Source: a virus. From it: 64,000 nt of DNA. Of the stretch, positions 24,587 through 43,250 are shown one piece after another. Location: positions 1 through 64,000 of the IMG/VR virus record IMGVR_UViG_3300032896_000001, one strand, 5' to 3'. The translations under genes and the position numbers were made by a program. Position 1 is the first letter of the stretch. Every line of letters starts with the position of its first letter. The notes below the pieces were generated by a model that had not been told where the DNA came from, ran no database searches, and saw nothing but the letters and a program-made list of their open reading frames with translations.

Positions 24587-27500
24587 ATGAGCGTCCGATC
24601 CCGCGCCGCCTTCGCCACGGCCCCGACCGTCGAGGTCGCCAAGGTCTTCGGCCCGGGGGTTCCGCCGGCGATCCAGGCGGCTGAGGCCGAGGCGCAGATG
24701 ACGCCGACGAGCCCGTTCGGCCCCGGCACCCCGATCGGCCCGTACGACGGGTTCTCGCGGCAGCCGCGCAGCCAGAATTTCGTCACCGGGGTCAACATCG
24801 CGACCCGGCCGCGGACGCATGAGCGGGTCAGCTTCGAGACGCTCAAGGGCCTCATCGACGCTTATGACATTGCATCTATTGCGATCTGGCATCGTATTGA
24901 CTCGATCCGCAGCCTGGATTGGCAGCTCATCGCGGCGCCGCATTTCCAGGGCAATGTGACCGACATTATCCCGCTCGGGGTCAAGGCGCTCAAGAAGCCG
25001 GACCGGATCAACTCGTTCAGCTCATGGCTGGCGAAGTGGCTTTTCGATGTTCTCGCCTATGACGCGGGGGCGCTTTACAGGCTCCGCAACCGGGCGGGCC
25101 GGTGCATCGGCCTCCTGCCGATTGACGGGACCTCGGTGGCACCGCTGCTCGATTACTGGGGCAACCCGCCGGGTGCCTTGAGCGCCCCGGGCGAGGTGCT
25201 TCCCGAGGCGTACGTCCAGTATGTCAACGGGCTGCCGTGGAACTGGCTGACGCGCGATGACCTGATCTACCAGCCGTTCCGGCCGCGCACCAACTCGCCG
25301 TACGGGCACGCGCCGCTCGAGTCGATAATTCTGAATGCAAACACCGATATTCGCTTTCAGCTTTTTTTCCTTCAAAGATTCACCGAGGGGAATATCCCGG
25401 AGGCGTTCGCGGCCGCCCCCGAGACGTGGTCGCCGGATCAGATAGAGCAATTCCAGGAATACTGGGATGGCTTTATGTACGGCGATCAGTCGCGGAAGCA
25501 CCAGATTCGGTGGATGCCGGGCGGGTCGAAATTCGCGTGGTCCAATGAGAAGGACTTCAGCGACACGTTCTCGCTGTTCCTGATGCGGAAGACTCTCGCC
25601 GCGTATCACACGGTCCCGGCCGACATCGGATTCACGGAAAATGTAAACAAATCGTCCGGGGAATCGCAGGCGGACGTTCAGCACCGCGTCGGCGAACTGC
25701 CCCTCGACGCCTACGTCGAGGCCGTCCTGACGGACTTCCTGCAAGACGACCTCGGCCTGCCGCTCCAGTTCGAGTTCGACAAGGGCGAAGAACAGGACGA
25801 CCGGCTCGCGGTCGCGCAGGCCGACGAGATCTACATGCGCAACGCCGTCATCGGCTCCAGCGAGATCCGGGAGATGCGGTTCGGCCTCCCCGAGCCCGAC
25901 GGGCAGGTCGTCCCCCGCGGGTTCTTCACCGAGCGGTCCGGGCTCATCCCGATCAACTCGGTGCTCGCCGTGGCAGGGCCGATCGACCCCGCGACCGCCG
26001 CGCCCGAGCCGGGCGCCCCGCTGCCCCACACCGTGTTCGGGGGCGTCGAGGGCGTCCTGCCGAACCCGCCGATCAAGGTCCCGAGCCTCGCCGAGCAGGA
26101 GTACGGCCCGGCGGCGATGCCCCCTGCGCCGCCCCCTCAGCCGAAGATGACCGCCGCCGACGCCACGCCCGAGCTGGCCACCGGGGCGGTCTCCAAGGAA
26201 GGCGAGGGAGCGGGAGGGAACGTCACCGGGGGCATCACGACGGCGACGGGCCTGTACTCCTACGACCTCCAGGGCCAGGACGACGAGGACGGCCCGGTTG
26301 ATCAGGCGGCGGTCGCGAAGGAGATGCAGGCGTTCCGGCGGTTCGCGAAGGCGCGCCGCAGGGACGGGGAATGGCGGGACTTCGAGTTCCGGGCGGTCCC
26401 CGCAGGCAGGGCGCGGCAGCTGAACGCCGAGGGCTTCACCGCCGCCCGCAAGGCGGCCGTGCCCGGTCTCACGTCCCGCTCCGGCATGATCTCCCTCGAC
26501 CTGCCGCCGGGAACGCTCAGCCCGGTACCGGGCGGCGTGGACGACTTCCACGTGACCGTCGTGTACCTCGGCAAGGACGTGGACGACGACGCGTTCGCCG
26601 CAGTCTGCGAGCGGGCGCGCCAGGCCGCCGCCCTGGTGCCCGGCCCGCTTCAGGGCACGGTCTCCGGCGTGGGCGCGTTCCCTCCGTCGGACTCGAGCGA
26701 CGGCAAGGTGCCCGCGTGGGCCGCCGTCGGCATCCCCGGCGCGGAAGCCCTGCGGAACGCGCTCGCCGACCTGTCTGCGAGCGAGCACAAGGACTGGACG
26801 CCGCACGTCACCCTCGCCTACCTCGACCCGGGCGACCCGCTGCCGGCCCCGCTGGAGCCGGTGCCGGTGACGTTCGCGTGCCTGTCGGTGCACCGCGGCG
26901 ACCAGGTGGAGCTGTTCCCGTTCGGCGGCGATGACGTGGCCAAGGCGGCGAGCACGATCCCAAAAGCGCCGACGGGGACCGGTGACGCCGCCCCCGCCTG
27001 GCACGGTTGGACTCTCGACGGGAAGACCGCCGCGCACTGGGCCCCGAAGGTCCGCGACTCGGTTAAGGCGGCGGTCCCGAGGGCGAAGGCCCGGGACATG
27101 GGCCGCGACTATCTCGCCGACCACCCGGATCAGGACGGCGGGGCGCCGGACAAGCGGGACCGGAACAAGGGTGCCGCGGCGTGGGTGGCCGCGTGGCTCG
27201 CACGGCACGGGATCACTCTCGTCCCGTCGGCGGTGGCCGAGGCGATCGCCGTGGACGGCTACGCGATCGGCGCCGTCTCCGCTCAGCATCAGGTCACCGG
27301 GGAGCGCCCGGCGGCGCAGAAGCCGGGCGACACCGACCGGGCGCTCGAGGCGGTCGGCGCGGCCGGGCTCCTCGCCGCCCTCGCCGCGGCGATGCGCGGG
27401 GAGAACGGCGCCCCGGCGGCCGAGGCGGTCGCCGACGGGATTGCCCGCGGGTACGGGAACGCCCTCGCGATCATCCTCGCAGGGACCGACGCCGACTGGG

Positions 27501-27829
27501 CGGACAGCCAGGACACGCTCGACGAGCTCGGGGACATGCTCTCCGAAGCGCTCTACGACGAGGACACCGCCGTCACGCTCGTCGGGACGCAGATCAACAT
27601 CTGGACCGGCTTGTCCGCGCACGAGTACTACATGGCGAACAGCGTGGCGTGGATTAGATGGCAAACGGAAGAGGACGGGCGCGTCTGCCCGCGCTGCGGC
27701 GAGAACGAGGACGCAGGCCCGGTGCTGACGGGCCAGCCGTTTCCTGATGGCCACACCTCGACACCGGGCCACGACCGGTGTCGCTGTGCGATCCTGCCGG
27801 CTTCCCCGCCGGGCGTGGCGCTGTCATGA
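24587..27829 (+). CDS. Portal protein fused to 2H phosphoesterase and MuF-like domains
   Basis: At 1,080 residues this is about twice a normal portal. Residues 60-480 are the portal (GRCIGLLPIDGTSVAPLLDY, VQYVNGLPWNWLTRDDLIY, DIGFTENVNKSSGESQADVQ). After a Pro-rich linker (500-560), residues 600-790 carry two HxT motifs, DDFHVTVVYLG at His655 and PHVTLAYL at His740, the signature of 2H phosphoesterases (LigT, 2-5A and anti-CBASS Acb1 relatives). Residues 985-1080 resemble the Mu gpF C-terminus: WIRWQTEEDGRVCPRCGENE then HDRCRCAILP. A GGGGAGGG site precedes the ATG. The fusion places an enzyme in each portal subunit. A local AT-rich patch lies at 25318-25385. Confidence 0.88.
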   Translation: MSVRSRAAFATAPTVEVAKVFGPGVPPAIQAAEAEAQMTPTSPFGPGTPIGPYDGFSRQPRSQNFVTGVNIATRPRTHERVSFETLKGLIDAYDIASIAIWHRIDSIRSLDWQLIAAPHFQGNVTDIIPLGVKALKKPDRINSFSSWLAKWLFDVLAYDAGALYRLRNRAGRCIGLLPIDGTSVAPLLDYWGNPPGALSAPGEVLPEAYVQYVNGLPWNWLTRDDLIYQPFRPRTNSPYGHAPLESIILNANTDIRFQLFFLQRFTEGNIPEAFAAAPETWSPDQIEQFQEYWDGFMYGDQSRKHQIRWMPGGSKFAWSNEKDFSDTFSLFLMRKTLAAYHTVPADIGFTENVNKSSGESQADVQHRVGELPLDAYVEAVLTDFLQDDLGLPLQFEFDKGEEQDDRLAVAQADEIYMRNAVIGSSEIREMRFGLPEPDGQVVPRGFFTERSGLIPINSVLAVAGPIDPATAAPEPGAPLPHTVFGGVEGVLPNPPIKVPSLAEQEYGPAAMPPAPPPQPKMTAADATPELATGAVSKEGEGAGGNVTGGITTATGLYSYDLQGQDDEDGPVDQAAVAKEMQAFRRFAKARRRDGEWRDFEFRAVPAGRARQLNAEGFTAARKAAVPGLTSRSGMISLDLPPGTLSPVPGGVDDFHVTVVYLGKDVDDDAFAAVCERARQAAALVPGPLQGTVSGVGAFPPSDSSDGKVPAWAAVGIPGAEALRNALADLSASEHKDWTPHVTLAYLDPGDPLPAPLEPVPVTFACLSVHRGDQVELFPFGGDDVAKAASTIPKAPTGTGDAAPAWHGWTLDGKTAAHWAPKVRDSVKAAVPRAKARDMGRDYLADHPDQDGGAPDKRDRNKGAAAWVAAWLARHGITLVPSAVAEAIAVDGYAIGAVSAQHQVTGERPAAQKPGDTDRALEAVGAAGLLAALAAAMRGENGAPAAEAVADGIARGYGNALAIILAGTDADWADSQDTLDELGDMLSEALYDEDTAVTLVGTQINIWTGLSAHEYYMANSVAWIRWQTEEDGRVCPRCGENEDAGPVLTGQPFPDGHTSTPGHDRCRCAILPASPPGVALS

Positions 27830-28084: not shown

Positions 28085-28089
28085 CGCGG

Positions 28090-28374: not shown

Positions 28375-28403
28375 AGGTTATCGCGGGGAACATCGCCTGT
28401 CAA
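28375..28403 (-). promoter_or_regulatory. Near-consensus promoter of the reverse cassette
   Basis: On the minus strand TTGACA (28403-28398), 17 bases, TAACCT (28380-28375); the expected start point is about 27 bases before the GTG at 28341. A second TGACA lies just upstream (GTGACAAGTGTTGACA), a possible operator. Confidence 0.75.
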
Positions 28404-28467
28404 CACTTGTCACGAAGTTTATTTCCCACCACCGCCACCGCCACCAACCACCACCAGGAGTTCCGCC

Positions 28468-28770: not shown

Positions 28771-28774
28771 CCGT

Positions 28775-29413: not shown

Positions 29414-29453
29414 GTCCCCGATTGTCCCCGACGAAACCCGCGACAGGAGCGAA

Positions 29454-30407: not shown

Positions 30408-30438
30408 GCGGCATGAGCGAGACGGCGGAAGGCCGCTA

Positions 30439-31400: not shown

Positions 31401-31720
31401 TGGACGAGGCGCCCAGCTTGACCGCCCTCGCGGCCCTTCTCGCCGACATAGCGCCCCAGCCGCGCCGCGAGCTGCTCTGCGGCCCCGGCGTCATCATGTG
31501 GCTGCGGATCCTGACCCCGGAGGACGCCCCGTCGTTCCCGTGGTCGCAGTCGCCTCCCTTCACGGGCATCCCGCTCATCCACTCGCCGGACCTCGGCCGG
31601 GGCGAGTGGGAGCTTCACGAGAACGGCGAGGCCGTGCGCAGCGGCCGGTTCGACCTGCCGGAGCCCCCGGACTTCCGGTCAGCCGCCCCGCCGGTCGCGT
31701 TCACCCCCCGCCTGATCTAG
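31400..31720 (+). CDS. Hypothetical protein
   Basis: A 106-residue protein with a helical start (LTALAALLADIAPQPRRELL) and a Pro/Trp-rich remainder. It begins with an ATG in a TGATG overlap with the previous stop. Not recognised. Confidence 0.58.
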   Translation: MDEAPSLTALAALLADIAPQPRRELLCGPGVIMWLRILTPEDAPSFPWSQSPPFTGIPLIHSPDLGRGEWELHENGEAVRSGRFDLPEPPDFRSAAPPVAFTPRLI

Positions 31721-32478: not shown

Positions 32479-32831
32479 GGCGCGGCCCACACTCCGGTCT
32501 TGTAGTCGTAGGCCGGCTTGTCCGGGTGCCCGGCCCAGATGTCGGCCATGGTCTCGATCGCGACCGCAAGCGCGTGAATGTACCCGGCCTGCCTCGCTGT
32601 TGTCTCCGGCGTCATCTCGGCGGCCCTGTAAGGCGCGTCGGCGTAGCTCACGATGGCCCGGTACCGGTCGACGAGCGACATCATCCACGTGACGTCGGGG
32701 GCCGCCGCCGCGAGCTCGCCCGCCGTCGGGCTGCCGGGGACGGCCGCGTACCGCTCGTGCAGGCGGGCGCTGACGAACTCGATCACTGGCGTGATGTCGT
32801 CGCGGATGACAGGCGCGGTCTCTTCGATCAT
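32475..32831 (-). CDS. DUF6221-like hypothetical protein
   Basis: A 118-residue protein: an acidic helical N-terminus (ITPVIEFVSARLHERYAAVP), a helix with DRYRAIV, and a C-terminal HALAVAIETMADIWAGHPDK motif, resembling the domain order of DUF6221 proteins, of which clearer members are at 34702 and 49522. GGAGGAG lies 4 bases before the ATG. Function unknown. Confidence 0.55.
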   Translation of the reverse strand: MIEETAPVIRDDITPVIEFVSARLHERYAAVPGSPTAGELAAAAPDVTWMMSLVDRYRAIVSYADAPYRAAEMTPETTARQAGYIHALAVAIETMADIWAGHPDKPAYDYKTGVWAAP

Positions 32832-32917
32832 GGCTCCTCCAGGTGGCGGCCAGGCGGCGGGCATGTGCACGAGCAGGTAATCACGCCAGGCGGCGTAGGC
32901 GAAGACGTCGTGCCCAC

Positions 32918-33109
32918 TCAGAAGATCACCTGGTGCTCGTACAGCCCGGTCCCGCCGCACGCCGGGTCGGGGTGCAACTCGCCGTCGCAGCGCGGGTCGC
33001 AGCACTGGATAGGGTCGTCGCACTCAACCCAGATCTCGCCTTCGCAGTGCGTGCAGCGCGGGTCGCTGTCGTCGCCGTCATACGGGTCGTTGTCGATGTC
33101 CTGCGTCAT
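32918..33109 (-). CDS. Small acidic Cys-rich protein, copy 2
   Basis: 63 residues; 58 are identical to the protein at 486-677 and all Cys are kept. ATGA overlap with the upstream gene. The changes are substitutions only, which suggests that both copies remain under selection. Confidence 0.75.
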   Translation of the reverse strand: MTQDIDNDPYDGDDSDPRCTHCEGEIWVECDDPIQCCDPRCDGELHPDPACGGTGLYEHQVIF

Positions 33110-33279
33110 TCGGTGCCCCACTCGTACCACCAGGCTTCGGCGCAGTCATCGTGGCAGAACATGCGCCCGTCGTAGCCGACCTCCGGGTTAATGCTCCCGC
33201 ACCAGGCGCAGGTTTCGTCGTGGTCGTCGTCCAGGGTGTCGTCTGCGCCGAGGTAGTTCCCCCGGCCGGCCGCGCTCAC
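33106..33279 (-). CDS. Small Cys/Trp-rich protein, copy 2
   Basis: 57 residues, 51 identical to the protein at 674-847, with both Cys motifs kept. GTG start in a GTGA overlap. Differences cluster at the N-terminus. Confidence 0.72.
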   Translation of the reverse strand: MSAAGRGNYLGADDTLDDDHDETCAWCGSINPEVGYDGRMFCHDDCAEAWWYEWGTE

Positions 33280-33446
33280 GTTGCCGCCAGATCGTCCGGG
33301 CAGTCCGCGCACGGCTCGCTGCCGAGGATAAGCGGCTCGAAGTGGCACTTCCCGGCGCGGGACTCCCAGAACCAGCATGTTTCCCGGCTGTCGGGTACCG
33401 GCTCGTCGTCTACCTCGTCGTCAAGGGTGCTGTTGCTGTCGGTCAC
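33276..33446 (-). CDS. Small Cys-rich protein, copy 2
   Basis: 56 residues, with 5 differences from the protein at 844-1014 in addition to a GTG rather than ATG start. Here it follows directly after the gene at 33443, whereas in the left arm about 3.8 kb of other genes separate the equivalent pair. Confidence 0.74.
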   Translation of the reverse strand: MTDSNSTLDDEVDDEPVPDSRETCWFWESRAGKCHFEPLILGSEPCADCPDDLAAT

Positions 33447-33658
33447 TTCGCACCCGCCGGGCACCACATCGAGCCGGTGTAGACGCTGCGCCACTCGCCG
33501 CGCTGGACCCAGATCGGCACCTCGCAGCCGCCGCACTGGTGGCGAGAGGGACCGCCGTGGCCTCCGGTGACGTCCGTGTAATGGCCGCTGGGGAAGTGCC
33601 TGCCGTCGCCGGCCGGCTGAGGGAATGTCGTTGCGAGCTCGCCGCCAGTGTGGCTCAT
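33443..33658 (-). CDS. Small Cys-containing protein
   Basis: A 71-residue protein with HQCGGC and further Cys/Trp (SMWCPAG), a likely zinc knuckle. ATGA overlap with the HTH gene upstream and GTGA overlap with the duplicated trio downstream. N-terminal Met-Ser-His-Thr as in the 4805 gene. Confidence 0.62.
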   Translation of the reverse strand: MSHTGGELATTFPQPAGDGRHFPSGHYTDVTGGHGGPSRHQCGGCEVPIWVQRGEWRSVYTGSMWCPAGAK

Positions 33659-33903
33659 GGCTGGTCCTCCGTTGTCGCCGTCTTCGCTTTCCGCCCCGGC
33701 CTGCGCGGGGCGGCTAGGTACTTGATCACGTCAGCCTCAACCCAGACCGGGCCCATCGCCAGCACCTGAACGGGCGCGGGGAAGTCCGGACGGTTGGCCA
33801 CCTGCCCGGCGTAGGAGCGGGAGACCTTCGCCTTGCCTGACCGCTCAGCCAGCAGGGCCGCCACCTCGGCGAGCCCTGCCAGCTTCGGGACGGTTCGCTT
33901 CAC
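33655..33903 (-). CDS. Excisionase-like HTH protein, paralogue of 5053 gene
   Basis: An 82-residue protein: LAEVAALLAERSGKAKVSRS (about 11-30) is the HTH and VLAMGPVWVEADVIKYLAAP the wing. It shares length, layout and the basic tail with 5053-5298. ATG in an ATGA overlap with the gene upstream. Confidence 0.72.
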   Translation of the reverse strand: MKRTVPKLAGLAEVAALLAERSGKAKVSRSYAGQVANRPDFPAPVQVLAMGPVWVEADVIKYLAAPRRPGRKAKTATTEDQP

Positions 33904-34175
33904 GCTGCCGCCAGTACCGCGGCGACGATCACGTCAACCTCGTCAAGGTCGTCGTCGCTGTACGCCCACGCCTCGAACGCGGCGTCGGCGGCCGGGCACC
34001 GGCTGGTGATGCTGTCGATGATGACGGCGCGGGTGAGCCGCTCGGCCTCGTCGCGGTTCGGCTTGGCCTCGAGGATCAGGAGCGCCTGGGCGAGGGTCCG
34101 TAGCGGCGTCGCGTTCGTGCGGGCGATCAGCTTCTCGCGGGGCGTCTGGGCTGCGGTGTTCGCGGTCGTTGTCAT
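33900..34175 (-). CDS. Small hypothetical protein from a probable leaderless mRNA
   Basis: A 91-residue, acidic, helical protein starting Met-Thr-Thr-Thr. No ribosome site before the ATG, and the -10 element ends 6 bases before it. It heads the transcription unit that includes the HTH gene and the duplicated trio. Confidence 0.65.
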   Translation of the reverse strand: MTTTANTAAQTPREKLIARTNATPLRTLAQALLILEAKPNRDEAERLTRAVIIDSITSRCPAADAAFEAWAYSDDDLDEVDVIVAAVLAAA

Positions 34176-34181
34176 AGCTCT

Positions 34182-34210
34182 ACAGTATGTCATTAACCTA
34201 ATTTCGTCAA
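34182..34210 (-). promoter_or_regulatory. Promoter for a leaderless transcript
   Basis: On the minus strand TTGACG (34210-34205), 17 bases, TACTGT (34187-34182), then 6 bases to the ATG at 34175. The spacer shares ATTA..TTxATGxCA with the next promoter, an indication of a common regulator. Confidence 0.72.
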
Positions 34211-34227
34211 GTAGTTTCCGTGCGCTT

Positions 34228-34653
34228 TCACGCGATGCCGCCGGCCGCGATGACCTCACGGGCCTCGCGGAGGATCTCGGCGACCCGCTCCGGGGCGTTG
34301 ACGTGGCCCCGGGCCGCCGGGTTGCTGCTGAAGTACAGTTCCCGGATCGCCTTGCGGTCGCCCTCGATCGGCTCCCACCAGGAGAGTTGCTGGCGAGCGT
34401 GCTCAAGCGACTGCTGGCGGCGGTAGTCAGCGGCGGCGGCGGCGTTCCTGATGGCGGTCGCCTTCGCGCCGGTGATCTTCGCGGCGCAGGTGGTGCCCGC
34501 GTAGGTGATCTCTTCGGTGTTGCCGTCCTCGTCGAGGATGTCGAGGATCACGGTGCCCTTGAGCTCGGGCTTCCCGCAGATCTGGCAGGTGGTCACGTCG
34601 TCGGTGGTGCCGCGGACCCGGAAGGCGGCGGGTCCGGTCTGTGTCGTCGTCAT
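34228..34653 (-). CDS. Zinc-ribbon protein from a probable leaderless mRNA
   Basis: A 141-residue protein. TTCQICGKPELKGTVILDIL (about 21-40) plus GTTCAAK (about 53-59) make a CxxC...C type metal site in a beta domain; the rest is helical (RRQQSLEHARQQLSWWEPIE). N-terminus Met-Thr-Thr-Thr-Gln-Thr as in the 5300 gene. Transcription should start at or beside the ATG. Confidence 0.68.
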   Translation of the reverse strand: MTTTQTGPAAFRVRGTTDDVTTCQICGKPELKGTVILDILDEDGNTEEITYAGTTCAAKITGAKATAIRNAAAAADYRRQQSLEHARQQLSWWEPIEGDRKAIRELYFSSNPAARGHVNAPERVAEILREAREVIAAGGIA

Positions 34654-34659
34654 GTCTAG

Positions 34660-34688
34660 ACTTTATGACATCAAGTTAATGATGTCAA
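34660..34688 (-). promoter_or_regulatory. Promoter with perfect palindrome, leaderless
   Basis: On the minus strand TTGACA (34688-34683), 17 bases, TAAAGT (34665-34660), then 6 bases to the ATG at 34653. A perfect inverted repeat, TGACATCA and TGATGTCA with 6 bases between (34666-34687), fills the spacer, so a dimeric repressor bound there would block polymerase. Confidence 0.8.
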
Positions 34689-34701
34689 GTAAATTGGCGT
34701 C

Positions 34702-35106
34702 TCACGGCTTCCATTCCTCCCGGTACCCGTCACGGTGACGGTAGCCGTCCGCAAGCAGACGGACAGCATGGTCCAGCGCCCGCAGGGCGCCGAAAACGCC
34801 TCCGCCGTCCGGGCCGCGCGCACCGCCGAACATGTCCGCCGCCGCGTCGCGCTCCCGGAGGATGGCAAGCTCCGCATCACAGCGGGCGATGGTGCTGAGC
34901 GGCTGCTGGCGCAGGATGTGCCGGGCCGCGTAGTCGCCTATTACAGCCGCGACCGGGCCGCCCTGCTCGTCCACGATGCCGGTCGCGGCCGCCTCCCACG
35001 GCTCCGGGTCGGCTGTCCACCGCAGGCGGATGACCTTGACGCTCGCGGCCCGCTTGTCCGCCTCGATCTCGGCGCGCAGCCAGGCCGCCAGGTCGTCACT
35101 CGCCAT
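34702..35106 (-). CDS. DUF6221-family protein
   Basis: A 134-residue protein. The pattern DDLAAWLRAEIEADKRAA at the N-terminus, IARCDAELAIL in the middle and VRLLADGYRHRDGYREEWKP at the end is that of DUF6221, a small actinobacterial and actinophage family of unknown function. Overlaps the upstream gene by 11 bases. Confidence 0.75.
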   Translation of the reverse strand: MASDDLAAWLRAEIEADKRAASVKVIRLRWTADPEPWEAAATGIVDEQGGPVAAVIGDYAARHILRQQPLSTIARCDAELAILRERDAAADMFGGARGPDGGGVFGALRALDHAVRLLADGYRHRDGYREEWKP

Positions 35107-35629
35107 CGGCCACCCACTCGAACCTCATGCCGTAGAGCAGTTCCCCTGCGAACCGCTCGTTGATCAGTTCCGTGACGTCCGCGATCCGGTCGGGGAGCCG
35201 GGCGGCGAACGCATCCTGCTCTGCGCGCATCCTCGCCCATGCGGCCTCGAAGGCGAGCGCGTCCAGTTCGGTGACCGGCGCTTCCTCTGGCGGCAGTGGC
35301 AGGAAGGCGCCAGCGTGGGCCAGCGCGTCCCCGAGCGCATACTGCTGCGACGGCGCCCACCCGACCCCGGATCCTGCCGGGCAGCCCGGCCGCAGGCACC
35401 TGGCCGCCCAGTCCCCCTCGCCGCGCTTCCATACCCGGCACCGGTGAACTTCGACCACCAGGCCGAGCCGCCGCCTGACTTCCTCGATCCACTCGCGCCG
35501 GGCGAGCCTCTCCAGTTCCCGGCGGTTCGCGGTGAACTGCCGTGCCCACGCCTTGGTCTCGGCCCACTCCTGATTCGAGGGGATGCGCGAGAACGGCGCG
35601 GACGCGGACGGCGGCCATTCATCGCTCAC
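35096..35629 (-). CDS. Hypothetical protein
   Basis: A 177-residue protein with a helical first part (ETKAWARQFTANRRELERLA), a Cys-containing centre (RCLRPGCPAG) and a helical end. GTG start in a GTGA overlap with the gene upstream. Not recognised. Confidence 0.6.
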   Translation of the reverse strand: MSDEWPPSASAPFSRIPSNQEWAETKAWARQFTANRRELERLARREWIEEVRRRLGLVVEVHRCRVWKRGEGDWAARCLRPGCPAGSGVGWAPSQQYALGDALAHAGAFLPLPPEEAPVTELDALAFEAAWARMRAEQDAFAARLPDRIADVTELINERFAGELLYGMRFEWVADGE

Positions 35630-35910
35630 GGCCGCATCATCCTTATCGTCCCCTCGGGGACGCCCGCCGCCCGCAGGCTCTCTTCGCGCCCGGCGAGCGC
35701 ATCGGCCCCGTGATGCTTGGCGAGCAGGTCGGCGTGACGCGGGCAGACGCCCACGCGGACCGCCCCGCCGTGCACGGGGACGAAGAAGTACAGCGGCCCG
35801 GGGCCCTGCTCGGCCTCACACCCGATGACCCCGTCATCGGAGAGCCACGGGTGGGCTTCACGCCACGCCTTGGTCGGCGTCGCGTAGAACTGGCACGTAG
35901 GCATTCTCAT
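35626..35910 (-). CDS. Small hypothetical protein beside tRNA-like gene
   Basis: A 94-residue protein with Cys/His residues (VCPRHADLLAKHHGADALAG) and a central strand (LYFFVPVHGGAVRVGV). ATG at 35910, 33 bases after the tRNA-like gene. An alternative start two codons later exists. Function unknown. Confidence 0.6.
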   Translation of the reverse strand: MRMPTCQFYATPTKAWREAHPWLSDDGVIGCEAEQGPGPLYFFVPVHGGAVRVGVCPRHADLLAKHHGADALAGREESLRAAGVPEGTIRMMRP

Positions 35911-35942
35911 GGGCCCGATTCTGCCAGCAGGAAGCGGAAGCG

Positions 35943-36088
35943 GCGGCCGACGGGATTCGAACCCGCGAAGGCTTCCGCGCTGCGCTGGCGCGTCTTTGTC
36001 CCGGGTCACCGGGAGCGCCTCGCCCGGCTCACTTTGCCGTGACCGGCGTTTCCTGCCGGGCCGCGTTAGGCCGCTCTGCCACAGCCGC
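35943..36088 (-). tRNA. Atypical, oversized tRNA-like gene
   Basis: The ends are typical: a 7-base-pair acceptor stem (GCGGCTG with CGGCCGC) and a T arm GCGGG-TTCGAAT-CCCGT. The D region (GCAGAGCGGCCTAACGC) resembles class II Ser/Leu tRNAs of actinobacteria, with one stem mismatch. But the gene is 146 bases, about 60 more than a class II tRNA. A 5-bp hairpin CCGGC-AGGAAAC-GCCGG could be the anticodon arm (Ser GGA or Phe GAA by position, lacking T33); another pairing, GCCCGGC with GCCGGGC, makes a 26-base loop. No CCA is encoded. It may carry an insertion or be degenerate. Confidence 0.5.
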
Positions 36089-36113
36089 CGCTTCCGCCGT
36101 GAAGCGTACCGCC

Positions 36114-37361
36114 TCAGGACCACAGCGGCATCTGCCCCCTCGTCGGCCGCCTCGCCGCACGCCCGAACTGCTTGAACTTCGGCCGCCCCTCCCTGGTGCC
36201 CCTCTGGGCCGGGCCGAGCAGATCGGCGAGCTCAAGCCCTGACGCCTCGCGCACGCGGGCGAGGATGAGCTGCCCGACGTTCCGCGCGGCCTTCACATCG
36301 CACTCGGCAAGCCGCACGATCGTCCATCCCTCGGCGCGCATGCGGGCGTCCCGCTTCGCGTCCTTGACAGCGCGGACCTTGTGCCAGAAGTCGCCGTCCG
36401 CCTCGATGGCTAGCTTGTGCTTCGGCACAGCGAAGTCGATCGACCAGCGGAGGAACGGGTACTCCTGCGCGAAGCCGACGCCCAGCAATTCGAGCGCAAC
36501 CCGGACGCTCGCCTCCAGCTGCGTCTCGCCCATGAACTGGCGAACGCAGGAGACCGAGCAGAACCGCCTCTTCACGTCACTCGCATGCGTCCGGAATTCC
36601 TTACCGCAGTTGTGGCACGCCATCATGAGCGGCGGCCGGCGGCACTCCTCGGAGCAGAAGCGCCTGTGCCAGCCCTCGCGGGTGTAGTCGGGTAGCCGCT
36701 TGCCGCAACGCTCGCAATCGACGTACACAGTATTCACGTTCTGACAGGCCCACCCGCATGTCTGGTAGCGGTCCTCGTTCGACCGCGCGATTGTGAAGTC
36801 CCTGCCGCACACAGGGCACGTCTTGGTGATCGTCCGGCCCCCGCTGCGGCACCTCATGGAGCAGAAGGGCCAGCCGCTCGTTATCACGTAGTCCCTGGTG
36901 AAGGACTTGCCACATCTCGCGCAGTCGTAGGCGTAGACCACGGGCTCCGGGTTAAGCCGAAGGTGCCGGGGATTCACGCACCTGTTGTGCGGGTCGCTGC
37001 CGCCGGAAGTCGGACAGTCCTTTGGACAGCACGTGTGGCCGACCTCCCGCCCCTCGGGGATGGGTCCGATGAAGAACTCATACGCCCATCGGTGCGCCTT
37101 GCGCTGAGGCGGCTTGCCGTCCTTGACGTAGATGTTCGCGTGACCGCTTTTCGGGTGAATCGAGTTCGTGTACAGCCAGCAGGCGTTCGGCCCGCCGGAT
37201 CTGTCGGAGTAGCCGAGGAACCTGACGATCACGGGCACATAGGTGTGCGGCCTGAAGGCCGCAACCTGCGGCAGCAACGGCTCGATGTAGTGCTCCAGGC
37301 ACAGGCCGTCGATTATCGGCCCGTCGATGCAACCAGCACCCGGGCATGTAGATTCGAGCAC
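36114..37361 (-). CDS. HNH - zinc finger array - Vsr-like endonuclease fusion
   Basis: A 415-residue protein. Residues 6-25 hold a Cys knuckle; 60-135 an HNH domain (CWLYTN, HRWAYEFFIGPIPEGREVGH, RCVNPRHL) in which the usual Asp before the first catalytic His is Gly; 145-275 four tandem CxxCG...C...C zinc fingers; 282-372 a Vsr/DUF559-like PD-(D/E)XK domain with WSIDFAVPKHKLAIEADGDF-WH and GWTIVRL. The last part matches the EDxHD homing-nuclease relatives of Vsr. GGAAGGAG precedes the GTG. Likely a homing endonuclease; the zinc fingers would set target choice. It borders the abnormal tRNA-like gene. Confidence 0.82.
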   Translation of the reverse strand: MLESTCPGAGCIDGPIIDGLCLEHYIEPLLPQVAAFRPHTYVPVIVRFLGYSDRSGGPNACWLYTNSIHPKSGHANIYVKDGKPPQRKAHRWAYEFFIGPIPEGREVGHTCCPKDCPTSGGSDPHNRCVNPRHLRLNPEPVVYAYDCARCGKSFTRDYVITSGWPFCSMRCRSGGRTITKTCPVCGRDFTIARSNEDRYQTCGWACQNVNTVYVDCERCGKRLPDYTREGWHRRFCSEECRRPPLMMACHNCGKEFRTHASDVKRRFCSVSCVRQFMGETQLEASVRVALELLGVGFAQEYPFLRWSIDFAVPKHKLAIEADGDFWHKVRAVKDAKRDARMRAEGWTIVRLAECDVKAARNVGQLILARVREASGLELADLLGPAQRGTREGRPKFKQFGRAARRPTRGQMPLWS

Positions 37362-37448
37362 GGCGACTCCTTCCAGTCGTCCAAGCCCCGGGCCGGGACA
37401 ACGAATGCGCCACATTCGCCGGTCGTGGGGGTTTCGCGTGCTAATTCG

Positions 37449-37454
37449 ATTATA
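37449..37454 (-). promoter_or_regulatory. Consensus -10 element in a palindrome
   Basis: TATAAT on the minus strand lies inside AATTCG-7-CGAATT (37443-37461), about 90 bases before the GTG of the fusion nuclease. The -35 region is weak, so an activator or extended recognition may be needed. Local AT content is far above the surroundings. Confidence 0.5.
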
Positions 37455-37518
37455 CCGAATTGAACTGGCCTATAAAGCCCGATCAGCGCTTTCGCCGCCG
37501 AATTGCGGGAGGTGCCGA

Positions 37519-38175
37519 ATGGGCGATGCGAGCCTGCTTGGCCCCTTCGGCGAGACCGACTGCCGGCAGCCGCACATGTACGCCCGGGACATCCGCTCGG
37601 CCGCGGGGAACTGCGTGTGCAAGGCGGCACCCTGGGATGCCCGGCATGAGGCGATCGCCCCGGGCCTGGGTGCCTCTGAGCTCCGCGCGGCGATCCGGAA
37701 GTGCATCGGCGGGGAGCCCGTCCGGGAGTTCTCCGAGGAGATCCAGCGCGGCGTGGTCCGGCAGCTGATCCCGGTCGCCAAGAGCGCCGAGAAGCAATTT
37801 CTGCTCGGCCTGGCCTATGTCGCCGGCCGTGATCCGCGTATCCGCAAGGGCATGGACGGCGGCCGTGATTTTCTCGACCCCGAAGACCTCGAGCGCGCCT
37901 GCTGGTCCTTCCTCCCGGGTGGCGGCCAGGTCGGCATCGGGCACATCGACGGCACTCTCGGGCACCTGACCGTGACCGAGAACTACATCTACCGCGGCCC
38001 GGACTGGGAGCAGCCGTCCGGCTTGGTCCTGAAGTCCGGCATGGCGTGGCTTATCGGGGGCCTGTGTGATGACCATGCCTGGCGGATGGCCAAGGCCGGG
38101 CATGTGAACGGGTTCTCCCCCCAAGGCGGGGGACGGCGGCTCAAGGTTCCGGCCATGGCGGGAGGTCTGTCGTGA
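37519..38175 (+). CDS. XkdF-like capsid maturation protease
   Basis: A 218-residue protein. From about residue 85 it follows the phage XkdF pattern: RGVVRQLIPVAKSAEKQFLL, then FLDPEDLERACWSFL, QVGIGHIDGTLGHLTVTENY and AGHVNGFSPQGGG, with the His of GIGHID as a possible catalytic residue. XkdF-type proteins are putative serine proteases that process the head. AGGTG lies before the ATG. First gene of the head operon after the reverse block; GTGA overlap with the scaffold-like gene. Confidence 0.72.
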   Translation: MGDASLLGPFGETDCRQPHMYARDIRSAAGNCVCKAAPWDARHEAIAPGLGASELRAAIRKCIGGEPVREFSEEIQRGVVRQLIPVAKSAEKQFLLGLAYVAGRDPRIRKGMDGGRDFLDPEDLERACWSFLPGGGQVGIGHIDGTLGHLTVTENYIYRGPDWEQPSGLVLKSGMAWLIGGLCDDHAWRMAKAGHVNGFSPQGGGRRLKVPAMAGGLS

Positions 38176-40445
38176 CAATGCTCCCCGACATCGACGACGA
38201 CGAGTTCACCCAGCTCACCGACGTGAACACCCCCAGGGCGGACATGGTCGGCCAGCCTGCCCACGGGTGGCCCGGCTGGCTGGTGATGAAACAGGACGCA
38301 GAGGGCGCGCTGCTCGACCCCGAGTTCGTCCGGGACCTGCTGTCAAAGAACACCGAACAGGAGGCCCCCGTGCCCCAAGCGACCGACGCGGGAGAGACGA
38401 CCCTCCCTAACGGCATCACCCTCAAGGGCTCCCCGGCTGCCATGGCCGCGTTCATCCACGCCTCGTCGGTCCGCAAGCAGGAGCAGCGGGCCGAGGACGA
38501 GCCGGGAGACGGCGACGTCGCCAAGGCCGACATGAGCGCGAAGAGCATCAACGACCTCGACGACTCCGACTTCGCGTACATCGAGCCGGGCGGCAAGAAG
38601 GACGACGAGGGCAAGACGACGCCCCGGTCGCTGCGGCACTTCCCGGTCAACGACGCCGCGCACGTCCGCAACGCCCTGTCCCGCGCCCCGCAGTCCCCGT
38701 TCGGCGAGAAGGCCATGCCCAAGATCAAGGCCCGCGCGAAGGCGCTCGGCATCGACGTAGCCAAGGAGGCCGGCGTGGCCGAGCCAGTGACCAAGGACAT
38801 GATGGACGCCGCCGGGGACGCGATGCCCCTCGATGACGGCGAGGACGGCCTCGACCCGACGGTCCCCCTCGCGATGCCGGAGGAGATGGCCCCGGGCGAC
38901 CCGACCGACCCCGGGTCCCCCGCGTGGGAGTCGGTCGACGCGGCGACGGCGATGAAGTGGACGACGATCCTCGCCCGCGCCGGCGCCGCGATCTCGATGA
39001 TGGCGGACCGGGAGATGCTCGAGGCCGCCAGCGCCGACCCGTCCGACGCGGAGAACGCGATGGACCTGCAGGACGTGCGCTGCGCGATCGACTACGCGAT
39101 CAGCGTCCTGGCCCCGTTCGCCGTGTCCGAGCAGTCCGAGGCTGACTGCGGGGCGATGGAGATGGAGGCGATCGGGAAGGCCGCCGCCGCCCTCGAGGCG
39201 TCCCCGCTGGCCGAGATCGAGGGCCTGGCCGCGATCCGGAAGGCGGGCCGGGTCCTGTCGTCCGCGAACGAGGCGAAGATCCGGGACGCCGCGAAGGCGC
39301 TCGGCGACGTCCTCGCGTCGCTCCCGTCCGCACCCGCGGCCGACACGGTCGCCAAGGAGAAGGAGGCCGTCATGGCCAGCCACACCATCGACGTGCGCGG
39401 CCGGGAGATGGCGCAGGGAGCCTCCGCGGCGACTCTCGCCAAGCCCGGCCCCGTCGTCAAGACCGCCATGCCCCCCGAGGACCAGGCCCGGAACACGGGC
39501 CCTGTGAACGCGGGCGGCACGACCGGCATGGGCCAGCCCCGCACGACCGGCCCCGACTCGGCGCTGCCCGGCGACGGCCCGCAGGAGGCCCGCCCCGGCG
39601 ACGCCCCCGGCCGCGCCGTCGTCAAGGGCGCCCTCCGGGTCGCCGTGTACGACCAGGGCGGCTCCCTCGCCGGGATCGTCGACCCCGGCCGTATCGTCGA
39701 GAAGGTCGCCAAGGCCGACTCCGACGCCCCCCCGAAGACCGCGATGCAGGCGGTCTTCGACGAGGACGGCAACCTCGTCGGCATCGTCGACCCCGCCGAC
39801 ATCACCCCGGTAGCCGGGGCGGGCGGCGGGTCGTCCGACAGCGACGGCGACGGGGACGGCATGCAGGCCGGCCCCGCCGCCGCAGCGGCCCCCGCGGACG
39901 GCGACATGACCCCGCAGCCCCCCGCCGACGCCGGCACCCCCGCCGACGCCGTGGGCAAGGCCGCGGACGAAAACGTGGACAGCCCTGGCACCGAAGCGCT
40001 CGACAGCATCATCGCGAAGGCAGTGGCAGCGGCAGCCGGCACGTTCGCCCCGGCACAGGAGGTCGTCGCCAGGCAGGCGGCCGACCTCGCCAGGGCGCTC
40101 GAAGAGGTCGAGCTGCTCAAGGCCCGCGTCGAGGTGGTGGAGGAGCACCCGGCCGCGCCGGGCGTGTTCACCAACGGGGCGCAGCCGCCCACGACAGCCG
40201 ACGGGCGCCCGCTCCCGCCGCCCGGCCAGCTCCGCGGGCAGGACCAGGGCCGCAGCGCGCCCGGGCAGATCAACATCGCCAAGGCGATGGAGCGCCGCAA
40301 GGAGCTCTACACGGCCCCCGACGCGGCGACCCAGAACACGATCGCCAAGGAGATGCAGGGCGACGCCATCGGCGCCCTGCAGGCCATTCACGCGGCCGGG
40401 CCGTCCCCGGTCCGGCTGGCCCCGGCGGAACTCGCCGCCCAGTAG
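38172..40445 (+). CDS. Scaffold-like head protein with DUF6582-type segment
   Basis: A 757-residue acidic, Ala/Asp/Pro-rich protein. Residues 130-195 (DFAYIEPGGKKDDEGKTTPR, then SLRHFPVNDAAHVRNALSRA) match a DUF6582-like unit often attached to prohead proteases or scaffolds. Two similar short units, VAVYDQGGSLAGIVDPGRIV and QAVFDEDGNLVGIVDPADIT, sit near 490-540. A coiled coil (about 630-655) and a basic end follow. Order between protease and capsid implies a scaffold; the length is unusual. Confidence 0.62.
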   Translation: MTMLPDIDDDEFTQLTDVNTPRADMVGQPAHGWPGWLVMKQDAEGALLDPEFVRDLLSKNTEQEAPVPQATDAGETTLPNGITLKGSPAAMAAFIHASSVRKQEQRAEDEPGDGDVAKADMSAKSINDLDDSDFAYIEPGGKKDDEGKTTPRSLRHFPVNDAAHVRNALSRAPQSPFGEKAMPKIKARAKALGIDVAKEAGVAEPVTKDMMDAAGDAMPLDDGEDGLDPTVPLAMPEEMAPGDPTDPGSPAWESVDAATAMKWTTILARAGAAISMMADREMLEAASADPSDAENAMDLQDVRCAIDYAISVLAPFAVSEQSEADCGAMEMEAIGKAAAALEASPLAEIEGLAAIRKAGRVLSSANEAKIRDAAKALGDVLASLPSAPAADTVAKEKEAVMASHTIDVRGREMAQGASAATLAKPGPVVKTAMPPEDQARNTGPVNAGGTTGMGQPRTTGPDSALPGDGPQEARPGDAPGRAVVKGALRVAVYDQGGSLAGIVDPGRIVEKVAKADSDAPPKTAMQAVFDEDGNLVGIVDPADITPVAGAGGGSSDSDGDGDGMQAGPAAAAAPADGDMTPQPPADAGTPADAVGKAADENVDSPGTEALDSIIAKAVAAAAGTFAPAQEVVARQAADLARALEEVELLKARVEVVEEHPAAPGVFTNGAQPPTTADGRPLPPPGQLRGQDQGRSAPGQINIAKAMERRKELYTAPDAATQNTIAKEMQGDAIGALQAIHAAGPSPVRLAPAELAAQ

Positions 40446-40470
40446 CGGCGCCCCTTCAGCAGCACCACCC

Positions 40471-40504
40471 GAAGCCCTCGCAGGCAAAGCGCCGCGGGGG
40501 CTTC
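40471..40504 (+). terminator. Hairpin between scaffold and capsid genes
   Basis: GAAGCCCTCGC (40471-40481) pairs with GCGGGGGCTTC (40494-40504), 11 pairs with one G-T, followed by TTG. A partial terminator or RNA-processing site here would let the capsid gene be expressed at a different level. Confidence 0.65.
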
Positions 40505-40532
40505 TTGCATGCCCCCCGAAAGGAGGCAAGCG

Positions 40533-42026
40533 ATGACCGCACCAGCGCAGAACATCAGCGAGGAGACCCTCGCGGAGATCCAGAAGGCCCAGACGCCGGG
40601 CATCTACGAGTCGACCGGGATCTGGTCGTACGACCTGTCCGGCCTCGTGTCCCTCGTCCCGGTCGTGACCCCGTTCCGGGATCTCGTCGCACGCGAGAAG
40701 GTTACTGACGGTAACCCATTTGCCGTGTGGCGCGCATTGATGAACGTCAATAGCTCCCAGCTAGACCCGGCAATGGGCATCGACTACGCCGCGAACGAAG
40801 CCACGTTCAGTGAGCAGGACTTCCAGGCGAAGTACGCCCCAACCGGCTACGCCGGCCTCGTCACCCAGGACGCGTTCGACTTCGCGACCGGCTACGCGGA
40901 CCCCTACGCCGTCGCGACCTTCCAGACCCTCAACCAGGTGCTGATCGGCGACGACCGCAAGCAACTCGGCGCGCAGTCCTTCGCCCTCGCCGCCGCCGCC
41001 GCCCCGTCGATGACCACCGCCACCACCGGCGGCACCATCGCCCTCAACACCACCGTCTACATCGGCGTCGCGGCCCGCACCGGCTCCGGCTTCTACTACG
41101 GCTCCGGCAACAGCCAGGGCAACAGCAACAGCGTCGAGACCGGCGGCAGCACCTCCACCAACACCGTCACCGGCACCGTCACCGCCATCCGCGGCGCCGT
41201 CTGCTACGACTGGTTCCAGAGCAGCAACGGCACCGTCTGGTACTACTACACGACGACCACCGTCAACTCGGTCACGATGACCAAGGTCATCACCACCAAC
41301 CAGGCGCTCCCCACCACCATCCCCGACCTGTCCGCCAACTGGAACGGCGTCGCCGGCGTCCCCACCTACAACGCGGCGGCTGACAACGGCTCCGCGAACG
41401 CCGACGACTACGACGGGTTCCTCGCCAGCCTCTCCGGCGACTACTCCTCCACCGGCCAGTGGGTCAAGCCCGGCACCGGCACCGCCAACCCGTCCCAGTG
41501 GACCTCCCTCAACGGCGCCGCCCTCACCCTCGGCGGCGGCACCGTCAACGAGATCGAGGAATACCTCTTCCTCACCCTCTGGAACGCCGTCAAGTGCTCG
41601 CCCACCGCGATCATGATGAACGCAGCCCAGGCGCAGGAAGTCGCCAACCTCATCCTCGCCAGCGGCAGCGCGACCACCTTCCTCAACACCGACGCCTCGG
41701 GCCGCATCAGCGTCACCGCCGGCGGCCGCGTCGGGGAGATCGTCAACGCCCCCGCCGGCGGCGCCACCGTCCCCATCGAGGTCCACGTCTCGCTGCCCCC
41801 GGGCACCATCATCGCGAGGACCGACCGGGTGCCCTTCCCGCAGGCCAACATCAGCAACGTCCTCGCGATGCGCTGCCTCCGCGACACCGCCCAGTTCGAC
41901 TACGGCATCGCGCGAGTCGCCGGGACCAAGGGCGGGGGGCCCCGCAAAGAGTTCGAGATAAGGTCAGTCAGTGCCCTGGCGAACCGCGCGCCGGTAGCCA
42001 TGGCTGTGCTGTCAAACGTCTCCTAG
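40533..42026 (+). CDS. Major capsid protein
   Basis: A 494-residue protein in the capsid position with a GAAAGGAGG site, the strongest in the region. N-terminal helix, a conserved-looking P-loop region (TPFRDLVAREKVTDGNPFAV) and C-terminal beta-rich A-domain (VHVSLPPGTIIARTDRVPFP, DTAQFDYGIARV) fit an HK97 fold. Residues about 145-300 are a Gly/Ser/Thr/Tyr-rich insertion, likely a surface domain. An AT-rich codon patch occurs at 40697-40790. Processing by the upstream protease is probable. Confidence 0.85.
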   Translation: MTAPAQNISEETLAEIQKAQTPGIYESTGIWSYDLSGLVSLVPVVTPFRDLVAREKVTDGNPFAVWRALMNVNSSQLDPAMGIDYAANEATFSEQDFQAKYAPTGYAGLVTQDAFDFATGYADPYAVATFQTLNQVLIGDDRKQLGAQSFALAAAAAPSMTTATTGGTIALNTTVYIGVAARTGSGFYYGSGNSQGNSNSVETGGSTSTNTVTGTVTAIRGAVCYDWFQSSNGTVWYYYTTTTVNSVTMTKVITTNQALPTTIPDLSANWNGVAGVPTYNAAADNGSANADDYDGFLASLSGDYSSTGQWVKPGTGTANPSQWTSLNGAALTLGGGTVNEIEEYLFLTLWNAVKCSPTAIMMNAAQAQEVANLILASGSATTFLNTDASGRISVTAGGRVGEIVNAPAGGATVPIEVHVSLPPGTIIARTDRVPFPQANISNVLAMRCLRDTAQFDYGIARVAGTKGGGPRKEFEIRSVSALANRAPVAMAVLSNVS

Positions 42027-42112: not shown

Positions 42113-42144
42113 GGCCCGGTCGGTGAGTCACCACCGGCCGGGCC
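42113..42144. other. Hairpin between capsid and HNH gene
   Basis: GGCCCGG (42113-42119) pairs with CCGGGCC (42138-42144) and an inner GGTGA/TCACC is also present. Lies in the 153-base gap after the capsid gene; probably a terminator or part of the HNH insertion. Confidence 0.45.
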
Positions 42145-42179
42145 AAGCCTGCCAACCCGCCATCACCGGGAGACAGACC

Positions 42180-43250
42180 GTGATCAACCCTACGGAAGAA
42201 AACCCTGCTCGCAAGGGCGAGCCGTGCCCTCTCGTGGAGAACGGCAAGATCTGCGGGGAGCCCGTGTTCGCGCGCGGGTGGTGCTCGAAGCACTACACGA
42301 CCGCGAGGCGCTTCGGCGACCCGCTGTTCCCTGTGAAGCGCCGCGGCAAGCAGGGCGGCAAGTGTCTCGCGCCCGAGGGGTGCGACAAGCCGGCCAAGGC
42401 GCACAATCTCTGCGAGAACCACCGCAGGCTGATGGCCAAGTACGGCGAGACGACACCCTCGCGCGAGCGGCGTTTCTGGGCGAAGGTCGACAAGAGCGGC
42501 GGCCCCGACGCCTGCTGGCCTTGGACCGGCTGGTGTCAGAAGAACGGCTACGGCCAGTACGGCTCCACTCGCAACGGCTCGAACCTGGTCCACCGCATCG
42601 CCTACGAGTACCTAGTCGACCCCATCCCGGACGGCCTCGTACTCGACCACCTGTGCCACACGGCCGACCCGCAGTGCGCAGACAACGACGCCTGCCCGCA
42701 CCGCAAATGCTGCAACCCGAAACACGGGGAGCCCGTCACCAGGCGCGAGAACATCGCCCGAGGTCGAGGCGGCGACTCGTGGGGCTACGTGCCCGATCCC
42801 ATCCCGGCCCCGGCCGAGAAGCCGATCAACTGCGTCAAGTGCGGCCGCACGGACAAGCCCGTCTACAAGAGCGGCATGTGCCGCCTCTGCTACCGCAAGC
42901 GTCACGAAGACCCCGCTTTCATGCCCCGGGCGGAGCGAACGCTCGAGGTCCGCTTCTGGTCCAAGGTCGACAAGGACGGCCCGCTCCCTTATGAGCGGCT
43001 TGACCTGGGGCCGTGCTGGATCTGGACCGCCGGCATCAATAAGACGACCGGCTATGCCCGATTCGCCGTCAAGCATGGCGAGATGATGGACGGCCACCGC
43101 CTCTCGTACCTAATGGCCCACGGCTCGATCCCCGAGAAGCACGACGTGCATCACGTGTGCCTCCGGCGGGCCTGCGTTAACCCGGCCCACCTCGAGGCCG
43201 TGACTCGATCTGTCAACCTCGCCGAGCGGAAGAACCGCCGGAGCAGGTAG
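42180..43250 (+). CDS. Tandem-HNH endonuclease with zinc knuckles
   Basis: A 356-residue protein. Zinc knuckles at about 15-40 and 58-85 precede HNH-1 (CWPWTG, HRIAYEYLVDPIPDGLVLDH, KCCNPKH). A third knuckle (CVKCGRTDKPVYKSGMCRLC) separates it from HNH-2 (CWIWTA, HRLSYLMAHGSIPEKHDVHH, RACVNPAHL). Both domains keep the DH or HH catalytic pair. GGGAGA precedes the GTG. Two nuclease domains in one chain could nick both strands. It sits alone between the capsid gene and a strong terminator, as a mobile intergenic homing gene would. Confidence 0.85.
   Translation: MINPTEENPARKGEPCPLVENGKICGEPVFARGWCSKHYTTARRFGDPLFPVKRRGKQGGKCLAPEGCDKPAKAHNLCENHRRLMAKYGETTPSRERRFWAKVDKSGGPDACWPWTGWCQKNGYGQYGSTRNGSNLVHRIAYEYLVDPIPDGLVLDHLCHTADPQCADNDACPHRKCCNPKHGEPVTRRENIARGRGGDSWGYVPDPIPAPAEKPINCVKCGRTDKPVYKSGMCRLCYRKRHEDPAFMPRAERTLEVRFWSKVDKDGPLPYERLDLGPCWIWTAGINKTTGYARFAVKHGEMMDGHRLSYLMAHGSIPEKHDVHHVCLRRACVNPAHLEAVTRSVNLAERKNRRSR

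What the first reader, a model, noticed from the sequence alone, without database searches (positions are those of the whole stretch)
36114..37361. HNH, four zinc fingers and a Vsr/EDxHD-like nuclease in one protein
Seen: Cys knuckle, HNH-like domain with Gly in place of the usual Asp before the catalytic His, four evenly spaced CxxCG...C...C fingers, and a PD-(D/E)XK domain with the Glu-x-Asp...Trp-His pattern of Vsr-related homing nucleases. I know HNH and EDxHD homing enzymes separately; this order with a finger array is unusual. The zinc fingers would give modular DNA recognition, and the Vsr-like domain may have taken over catalysis from a weakened HNH.
Basis: partly seen in the sequence, partly recalled or inferred. 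Interest (0 to 1): 0.75.

Follow-up and report, generated by a model that had tools for sequence, protein, structure and literature searches.

The report
Two-nuclease zinc-finger homing endonuclease
A phage gene encodes one protein with two different DNA-cutting domains joined by four zinc fingers; it looks like a selfish gene inserted among head genes, and its nearest relatives sit back-to-front inside self-splicing protein inserts (inteins) of phage head genes.

Summary
The gene is window 36114-37361, minus strand, GTG start, 415 aa: Cys knuckle, HNH domain, four CxxC...CxxxC fingers 33-35 residues apart, and a C-terminal EDxHD (Vsr-like) nuclease closest to I-Bth0305I. It is not an assembly artefact: a full-length 62%-identical homologue (L073) lies antisense at the same portal/protease junction, which is nearly empty (<150 bp) in 38 of 55 related loci. 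Best explanation: a free-standing homing endonuclease, an HNH domain added to a zinc-finger/EDxHD enzyme. The 'weakened HNH' idea is only partly supported: the catalytic His, Asn and His are kept under purifying selection and 13 of 28 relatives lack the Asp, but 13 of 13 long-loop HNH relatives have it. The combination is rare: 2 distinct proteins among 146 Vsr-like and 133 HNH ORFs in the fetched loci, and none in 396 actinobacterial genomes. The most surprising result is outside the window. The closest relatives, which lack the HNH, are encoded antisense inside inteins, all 14 distinct cases at one site of a MuF head gene. The antisense frame stays open even in AT-rich phages (P down to 3e-8). 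The window protein appears to descend from that group.

The parts
36114..37361 (-). HNH-ZF4-EDxHD endonuclease gene (HZV), 415 aa, GTG start
   Evidence: homologue L073 62% identical
37290..37346 (-). N-terminal Cys knuckle (C6, C11, C21, H24), shared with many of the aligned HNH relatives
36936..37241 (-). HNH (His-Me finger) domain, about residues 41-142; long-loop type
   Evidence: PHROG 826 E 2.7e-19; model pLDDT 85; VIA matches to I-PpoI Z 4.3, I-HmuI Z 4.0 and, as high or higher, NFI/Smad MH1
37035..37040 (-). Gly108-His109 of the HNH motif (Gly where 15 of 28 relatives have Asp)
36849..36923 (-). zinc finger 1 (C147, C150, C167, C171)
36744..36818 (-). zinc finger 2 (C182, C185, C202, C206)
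36642..36716 (-). zinc finger 3 (C216, C219, C236, C240)
36546..36617 (-). zinc finger 4 (C249, C252, C268, C272)
36216..36536 (-). EDxHD / DUF559 / Vsr-like nuclease domain, about residues 276-382
   Evidence: Pfam DUF559 E 7.5e-10; profile to 3r3p E 4.5e-14; Foldseek 3r3p E 5e-4, TMt 0.79
36381..36404 (-). catalytic segment E320-x-D322-G-x-x-W326-H327
   Evidence: invariant positions in 18 relatives
37441..37462 (-). palindrome over a TATAAT-like -10 box upstream of the gene; similar sequence in L073
   Evidence: inspection only
37519..38175 (+). head maturation protease (S78_2) next to the gene; start re-assigned to 37519
24587..27829 (+). portal-MuF gene; empty intein site of the sister elements at 27685/27686 (WQTEEDGRV|CPRCGE)
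42123..43250 (+). separate gene with two HNH domains after the capsid gene; patchy in relatives
   Evidence: 21 of 81 loci

Best explanation
It is a free-standing phage homing endonuclease. The finger array and the C-terminal EDxHD nuclease come from a clade of zinc-finger/EDxHD endonucleases whose members mostly live antisense inside inteins of the phage MuF head gene. In this lineage the gene left the intein, settled antisense between the portal-MuF gene and the head protease, and gained an N-terminal HNH domain where relatives have one more finger. Inferred mechanism: the fingers bind a long, conserved DNA site in the head-gene region of phages that lack the gene, one or both nuclease domains cut it, and repair from the carrier copies the gene across. 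Shown: architecture, same-site homologue, empty sites, patchy distribution, selection on the domains, position on the tree. Inferred: zinc binding, cleavage, homing, the target, and whether both domains cut.
For: Full-length homologue L073 (62%) on the antisense strand between portal and protease, its stop codon overlapping the portal stop. Of 55 relatives with both genes in view, 38 have a gap under 150 bp and only L073 has the gene. Close relative L034 (portal 87%, protease 89%, capsid 86%) has no match anywhere in its 132-kb record. L103 keeps an 11-bp scrap of the gene's 3' end after the portal stop (longest match in 36 other loci: 7), as expected after loss. dN/dS 0.23-0.32 in each domain. 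Best structural match is the homing endonuclease I-Bth0305I. Tree: the pair is nested among intein-borne enzymes (96/92). All 14 distinct inteins in that clade sit at one MuF site; that site lies about 120 bp before the portal stop where the L073 gene begins.
Against: Only two examples. In the window the MuF site is 8.3 kb from the gene, so the target may instead be near the protease start. Homing or cleavage is not shown. The gene's divergence from L073 (62%) is like that of the flanking genes (portal 59%, protease 50%, capsid 74%), so old vertical inheritance with losses fits as well as recent movement. The exact insertion boundaries in the window could not be fixed, because L034's neighbouring gene is unrelated.
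Confidence: 0.7

Rival explanations
1. The HNH domain is no longer a nuclease but a DNA-binding module (as the related Smad MH1 and NFI folds are recalled to be), and only the EDxHD domain cuts.
For: Gly108 replaces the Asp found in all 13 other long-loop HNH relatives. The HNH domain is the fastest changing of the main domains (57% identity, dN/dS 0.32). Its model aligns to NFI (Z 5.0) and Smad MH1 (Z 4.4) slightly better than to I-PpoI (4.3) or I-HmuI (4.0), ties within 1 Z.
Against: His109, Asn130 and His133 are invariant in 28 sequences, with Cys111 and Cys128; the motif is better conserved than the rest of the domain, p 2e-4; 13 of 28 relatives lack that Asp.
Confidence: 0.35
2. Both domains cut, one strand each, so that a single protein makes a staggered double-strand break across the finger-bound site.
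For: Both active-site motifs are complete apart from Gly108 and conserved. I-Bth0305I is reported to dimerise on a target of nearly 60 bp (PMC3943268, passages seen), and some HNH homing enzymes nick (I-PfoP3I, title seen).
Against: No biochemical evidence; sister enzymes without an HNH are apparently mobile.
Confidence: 0.3
3. Anti-phage or restriction-type nuclease rather than a homing enzyme.
For: DUF559 and HNH domains occur in defence proteins (recalled); the region between portal and protease collects extra genes in some relatives (9 of 55 gaps of 600 bp or more).
Against: PADLOC's only match is weak and is labelled homing endonuclease (E 0.0019); the closest relatives are intein-borne endonucleases.
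Confidence: 0.08
4. Assembly or frameshift artefact joining two genes.
For: No isolated phage or plasmid has the full protein (no record covers 80% of it).
Against: Independent contig L073 has the same fusion.
Confidence: 0.01

Closest known systems
I-Bth0305I and EDxHD homing endonucleases
   Same: C-terminal nuclease domain: profile E 4.5e-14 and Foldseek TMt 0.79 to 3r3p; conserved E, D, H, D residues
   Different: No intron found here; finger array instead of the I-Bth0305I DNA-binding region; extra HNH domain
Zinc-finger/DUF559 proteins of phages and actinobacterial plasmids (Donovan gp58, Streptomyces WUT01669)
   Same: Tandem CxxC...CxxxC fingers followed by the Vsr-like domain
   Different: 3 or 7 fingers, no HNH
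MuF-intein ZF5-EDxHD endonucleases (L196, L275, L276 and others, found here)
   Same: Nearest relatives on the tree; L196, L275 and L276 share the PLW-like C-terminal tail; antisense to the head gene
   Different: Inside an intein, usually five fingers, no HNH
HNH_3 / PHROG 826 phage HNH endonucleases
   Same: HNH with H-x-C...C-x-N-P-x-H, often with the Cys knuckle
   Different: They lack the fingers and the EDxHD domain; the long-loop members have Asp before the His
ShiLan-type hidden HNH endonuclease (PMC11855218; outline, abstract, one section and one passage seen)
   Same: Endonuclease overlapping a host phage gene that stays open in frame
   Different: Abstract: out-of-frame HNH with GTG start and TAA stop in the insertion, no splicing domain; the word antisense does not occur in it. 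The relatives here are antisense within a recognisable intein

Membership tests
EDxHD (Vsr-like) homing endonuclease | EDxHD catalytic domain related to I-Bth0305I | tested here: met
EDxHD (Vsr-like) homing endonuclease | site-specific DNA cleavage of an allele lacking the element | not testable with these tools
   needs purified protein
EDxHD (Vsr-like) homing endonuclease | patchy presence at a conserved site with empty alleles | tested here: met
   present in the window and L073; 38 of 55 loci have under 150 bp between portal and protease; L034 record has none
HNH (His-Me finger) endonuclease | general-base His, metal-binding Asn, structural His | tested here: met
   H109, N130, H133 invariant in 28; roles recalled from I-PpoI/I-HmuI
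HNH (His-Me finger) endonuclease | Asp before the catalytic His | tested here: not met
   Gly108; not universal: 15 of 28 have Asp
HNH (His-Me finger) endonuclease | His-Me finger fold | tested here: inconclusive
   I-PpoI Z 4.3, I-HmuI Z 4.0, all matches Z 5.0 or less
Vsr mismatch-repair endonuclease | TIGR00632 curated cut-off | tested here: not met
   25.2 bits against 97.85
Intein-encoded endonuclease | gene inside an intein with open host frame | tested here: not met
   three stops in the codon-aligned antisense frame, expected 1.98; portal without a Hint match
Intron-encoded endonuclease | surrounding group I/II intron | tested here: inconclusive
   no Rfam intron match in 27500-40600 up to E 1; absence of a match is not proof
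Zinc-finger DNA-binding array | fingers bind zinc and DNA | not testable with these tools
   all 16 Cys identical in L073 and invariant in 18 relatives

The most novel reading that the evidence does not exclude
The window protein is an escaped, two-nuclease member of an undescribed kind of mobile element: inteins in phage MuF head genes whose homing endonuclease is encoded on the opposite strand, codon against codon, so that the same DNA is read one way as the intein and the other way as the zinc-finger/EDxHD enzyme that spreads it.
Probability: 0.65. Interest if true: 0.78.

Novelty: new variant of a known kind. Interest (0 to 1): 0.58.

Why it matters
It gives a natural single-chain enzyme with two different nuclease chemistries around a finger array, which would make the question of how homing enzymes change or add cutting domains directly testable. 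Its relatives suggest how a homing gene can ride inside an intein on the opposite strand and then leave it, an arrangement not found in the searches listed in the report.

Tried and rejected
Rejected: assembly artefact (L073); Vsr repair enzyme; intron (no match); defence system. The A4 alignment was discarded because HNH-only rows were misaligned; two separate alignments (A5, A6) were used for folding. In the full-length model the HNH region is poor (pLDDT under 50 over most of 29-138), so the HNH domain was folded alone. The profile search of PDB with the HNH alignment found nothing (best E 0.63). A synonymous-shuffle test of the antisense frame was not informative for the codon-aligned frame, because shuffling keeps codon counts; it was replaced by codon usage of flanking ORFs. 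The exact insertion point in the window could not be set from L034. Foldseek gave no HNH match at E 0.001 or better.

Selections: the tree used 21 close ZF-EDxHD rows, the two fusion rows without their HNH part, and 12 outgroup rows picked by hand from the 146 Vsr-like ORFs; 17 rows were labelled embedded, of which L203 and L293 have only weak N-block hits and no C-block hit. Identical inteins were dropped before the count of 14, and L209, an in-frame intein at another position, was set aside. The 49 HNH motifs are only those a regular expression caught among the HNH ORFs.

Full report
What is there. Window 36114-37361 (minus strand) encodes a 415-aa protein. The ATG form reaches 37415 (433 aa), but its first residues are not conserved (1-20 of the long form: 19 aligned positions, 26% identical, dN 1.11 and dS 0.87) and the GTG at 37361 has a good ribosome site that is also seen in the homologue. 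The window is the first 64 kb of a 105,095-base virus record. GC is 70%. The capsid protein is about 40% identical to Arthrobacter phages Mufasa8 and Sonali. The gene lies between the portal-MuF gene (24587-27829) with the genes that follow it and the head protease, whose start I place at 37519.

Domains. HNH: PHROG 826 E 2.7e-19, Pfam HNH_3 E 7.7e-5, just under cut-off. EDxHD/Vsr-like: Pfam DUF559 E 7.5e-10; profile match to I-Bth0305I (3r3p) E 4.5e-14; Foldseek best match 3r3p, E 5e-4, TMt 0.79. Fingers start at 147, 182, 216 and 249; a chain of four did not occur in 20,000 shuffles. The HNH domain folded alone has mean pLDDT 85; its structural neighbours are NFI (Z 5.0), Smad MH1 (4.4), I-PpoI (4.3) and I-HmuI (4.0), all weak and tied. 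That Smad MH1 is a relative of His-Me finger nucleases is recalled, not tested.

Is the fusion real? Among 80 viral loci with a related capsid gene plus Sonali, one, L073 (111-kb record), has a full-length 62%-identical protein on the minus strand between portal and protease, its stop codon overlapping the portal stop. In 55 of these loci both portal end and protease are in view: 38 have a gap under 150 bp (one, L062, has a negative gap of 315, an artefact of the stop search), 8 have 150-600 and 9 have 600 or more; only L073 has the gene. L034, the relative nearest to the window with the region in view, has no match in its whole record. L103, whose portal 3' end is 81% identical to L073's, has an 11-bp match to the gene's 3' end directly after its portal stop; 36 other loci reach at most 7.

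How rare is it? In 313 fetched loci, 146 ORFs match a Vsr-like profile built here and 133 an HNH profile built here (overlapping loci counted apart); 4 ORFs match both, and these are two distinct proteins, the window's and L073's. Of 396 actinobacterial genomes, 71 have partial matches and none a match spanning both parts (at most four candidates per genome were scored). Of 50,697 phage and 72,556 plasmid records none covers 80% of the protein. The relevant whole-collection scans were pattern based and can miss distant copies.

Is the HNH weakened? Before the catalytic His, 15 of 28 aligned HNH domains have Asp; the others have Gly (the two fusion proteins), Leu, Cys or Arg. All 13 other long-loop members have Asp, so Gly is a change specific to this lineage. 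His109, Asn130 and His133 are invariant. Between window and L073 the 14 motif residues are all kept against 42 of 85 others (p 2e-4); dN/dS is about 0.32 for HNH, 0.23 for fingers and 0.26 for EDxHD (ratios from dN and dS; dS is 0.8-1.1, so rough). Selection still holds the HNH motif; whether as nuclease or binder is open.

Where it came from. The closest ZF-EDxHD relatives lack the HNH and usually have five fingers. On the tree the two fusion proteins (100/100) group with L196, L275, L276 and L283 (96/92). These relatives are encoded antisense within larger ORFs that carry Hint domains: Pfam Hint_2 E 1e-10 to 1e-11 in three ORFs, and Intein_splicing E 2.5e-4 and 6e-5 in two of them (below cut-off). 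Profiles of the N and C intein blocks, built here from three of these ORFs, hit on both sides of the endonuclease gene in most of this clade. Fourteen distinct inteins all lie at the same place, before the CxxC of a MuF-like CxxC...CRC motif. Only the codon-aligned antisense frame is open. It needs the endonuclease gene to avoid TTA, CTA and TCA codons: 17 of 21 genes have none, with expected numbers of 1.5 to 13 from flanking ORFs and P(0) of 3e-8 (L292), 8e-6 (L286) and 9e-6 (L288); for GC-rich L196, L275, L276 and L203 it is only 0.07-0.21. The four others (L197, L201, L282, L294) have 2-10 such codons and no intein found on the opposite strand. The window gene has three (expected 1.98) and L073 four, so neither shows this constraint. 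Rfam finds no match in five of these loci.

Likely target. The empty MuF site in the window portal is at 27685/27686; in L073 the equivalent site lies about 120 bp before the portal stop where the gene begins. This suggests, but does not show, that the fusion enzyme still cuts there. In the window the site is 8.3 kb away, which speaks for the protease side instead or for later insertions.

Literature. Ten searches of the open PMC library listed no paper whose title or abstract start describes an HNH-ZF-EDxHD fusion or an antisense endonuclease within an intein; most subscription papers and bioRxiv preprints are not held. Read: PMC10448857 (abstract and one section: finger repeats and domain shuffling in T5orf172 enzymes), PMC3943268 (passages), PMC11855218 (abstract, one section and one passage), and passages of PMC1508164, PMC1635734 and PMC5050341, none on antisense coding of an endonuclease. 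Antisense homing genes in group I introns are known (PMC9548176, title and abstract start). Recalled and not seen: Dassa et al. 2009 on Vsr-like endonucleases with split inteins in fractured genes; a look-up failed.

Verdict. A real, rare two-nuclease variant of a phage homing endonuclease; ordinary in its parts, unusual in its combination, and interesting mainly for the antisense-intein clade it leads to.

Noticed in passing
L196 2989-4011, L275 2875-3909, L276 2833-3864 (+), also L199, L200, L277-L281, L283-L292: Zinc-finger/EDxHD endonuclease genes encoded antisense inside inteins of a MuF-like head gene, all 14 distinct cases at the same CxxC site, with the antisense frame kept open even in AT-rich phages such as L292. 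L282 is not among them.
   Followed up: partly
L006-L010, L012-L014, L016-L020: Large phage portal-like proteins (about 745 aa, longer in L009 and L010) with a Vsr/DUF559 domain at the C-terminus; L009 and L010 also have an intein-like insert.
   Followed up: no
L209 1846-5475 (+): A 1210-aa ORF with an intein carrying an in-frame Vsr-like domain inserted before a CRC motif.
   Followed up: no
L294 2670-3588 (+): Intein N-block followed on the same strand, in another ORF, by a zinc-finger/Vsr ORF: a possible out-of-frame sense arrangement.
   Followed up: no
window 24587-27829 (+): The portal protein carries an internal 2'-5' RNA ligase/LigT-like domain (residues 655-754, PF13563 E 5.6e-8); in L276 it lies after the MuF motif instead.
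   Followed up: no
window about 35943-36090 (-): A 148-nt tRNA-like stretch (GGCGGC...GGGTTCGAATCCC...GCCGCC) just downstream of the gene; ARAGORN finds nothing by default and only doubtful tRNAs when relaxed.
   Followed up: partly
window 42123-43250 (+) and record G000 73539-73754 (+): Further HNH genes in the same virus; the double-HNH gene after the capsid gene has relatives in 21 of 81 related loci.
   Followed up: no
window 27830-37361: The portal-protease junction collects extra, often minus-strand genes in some relatives (9 of 55 loci with 600 bp or more).
   Followed up: partly
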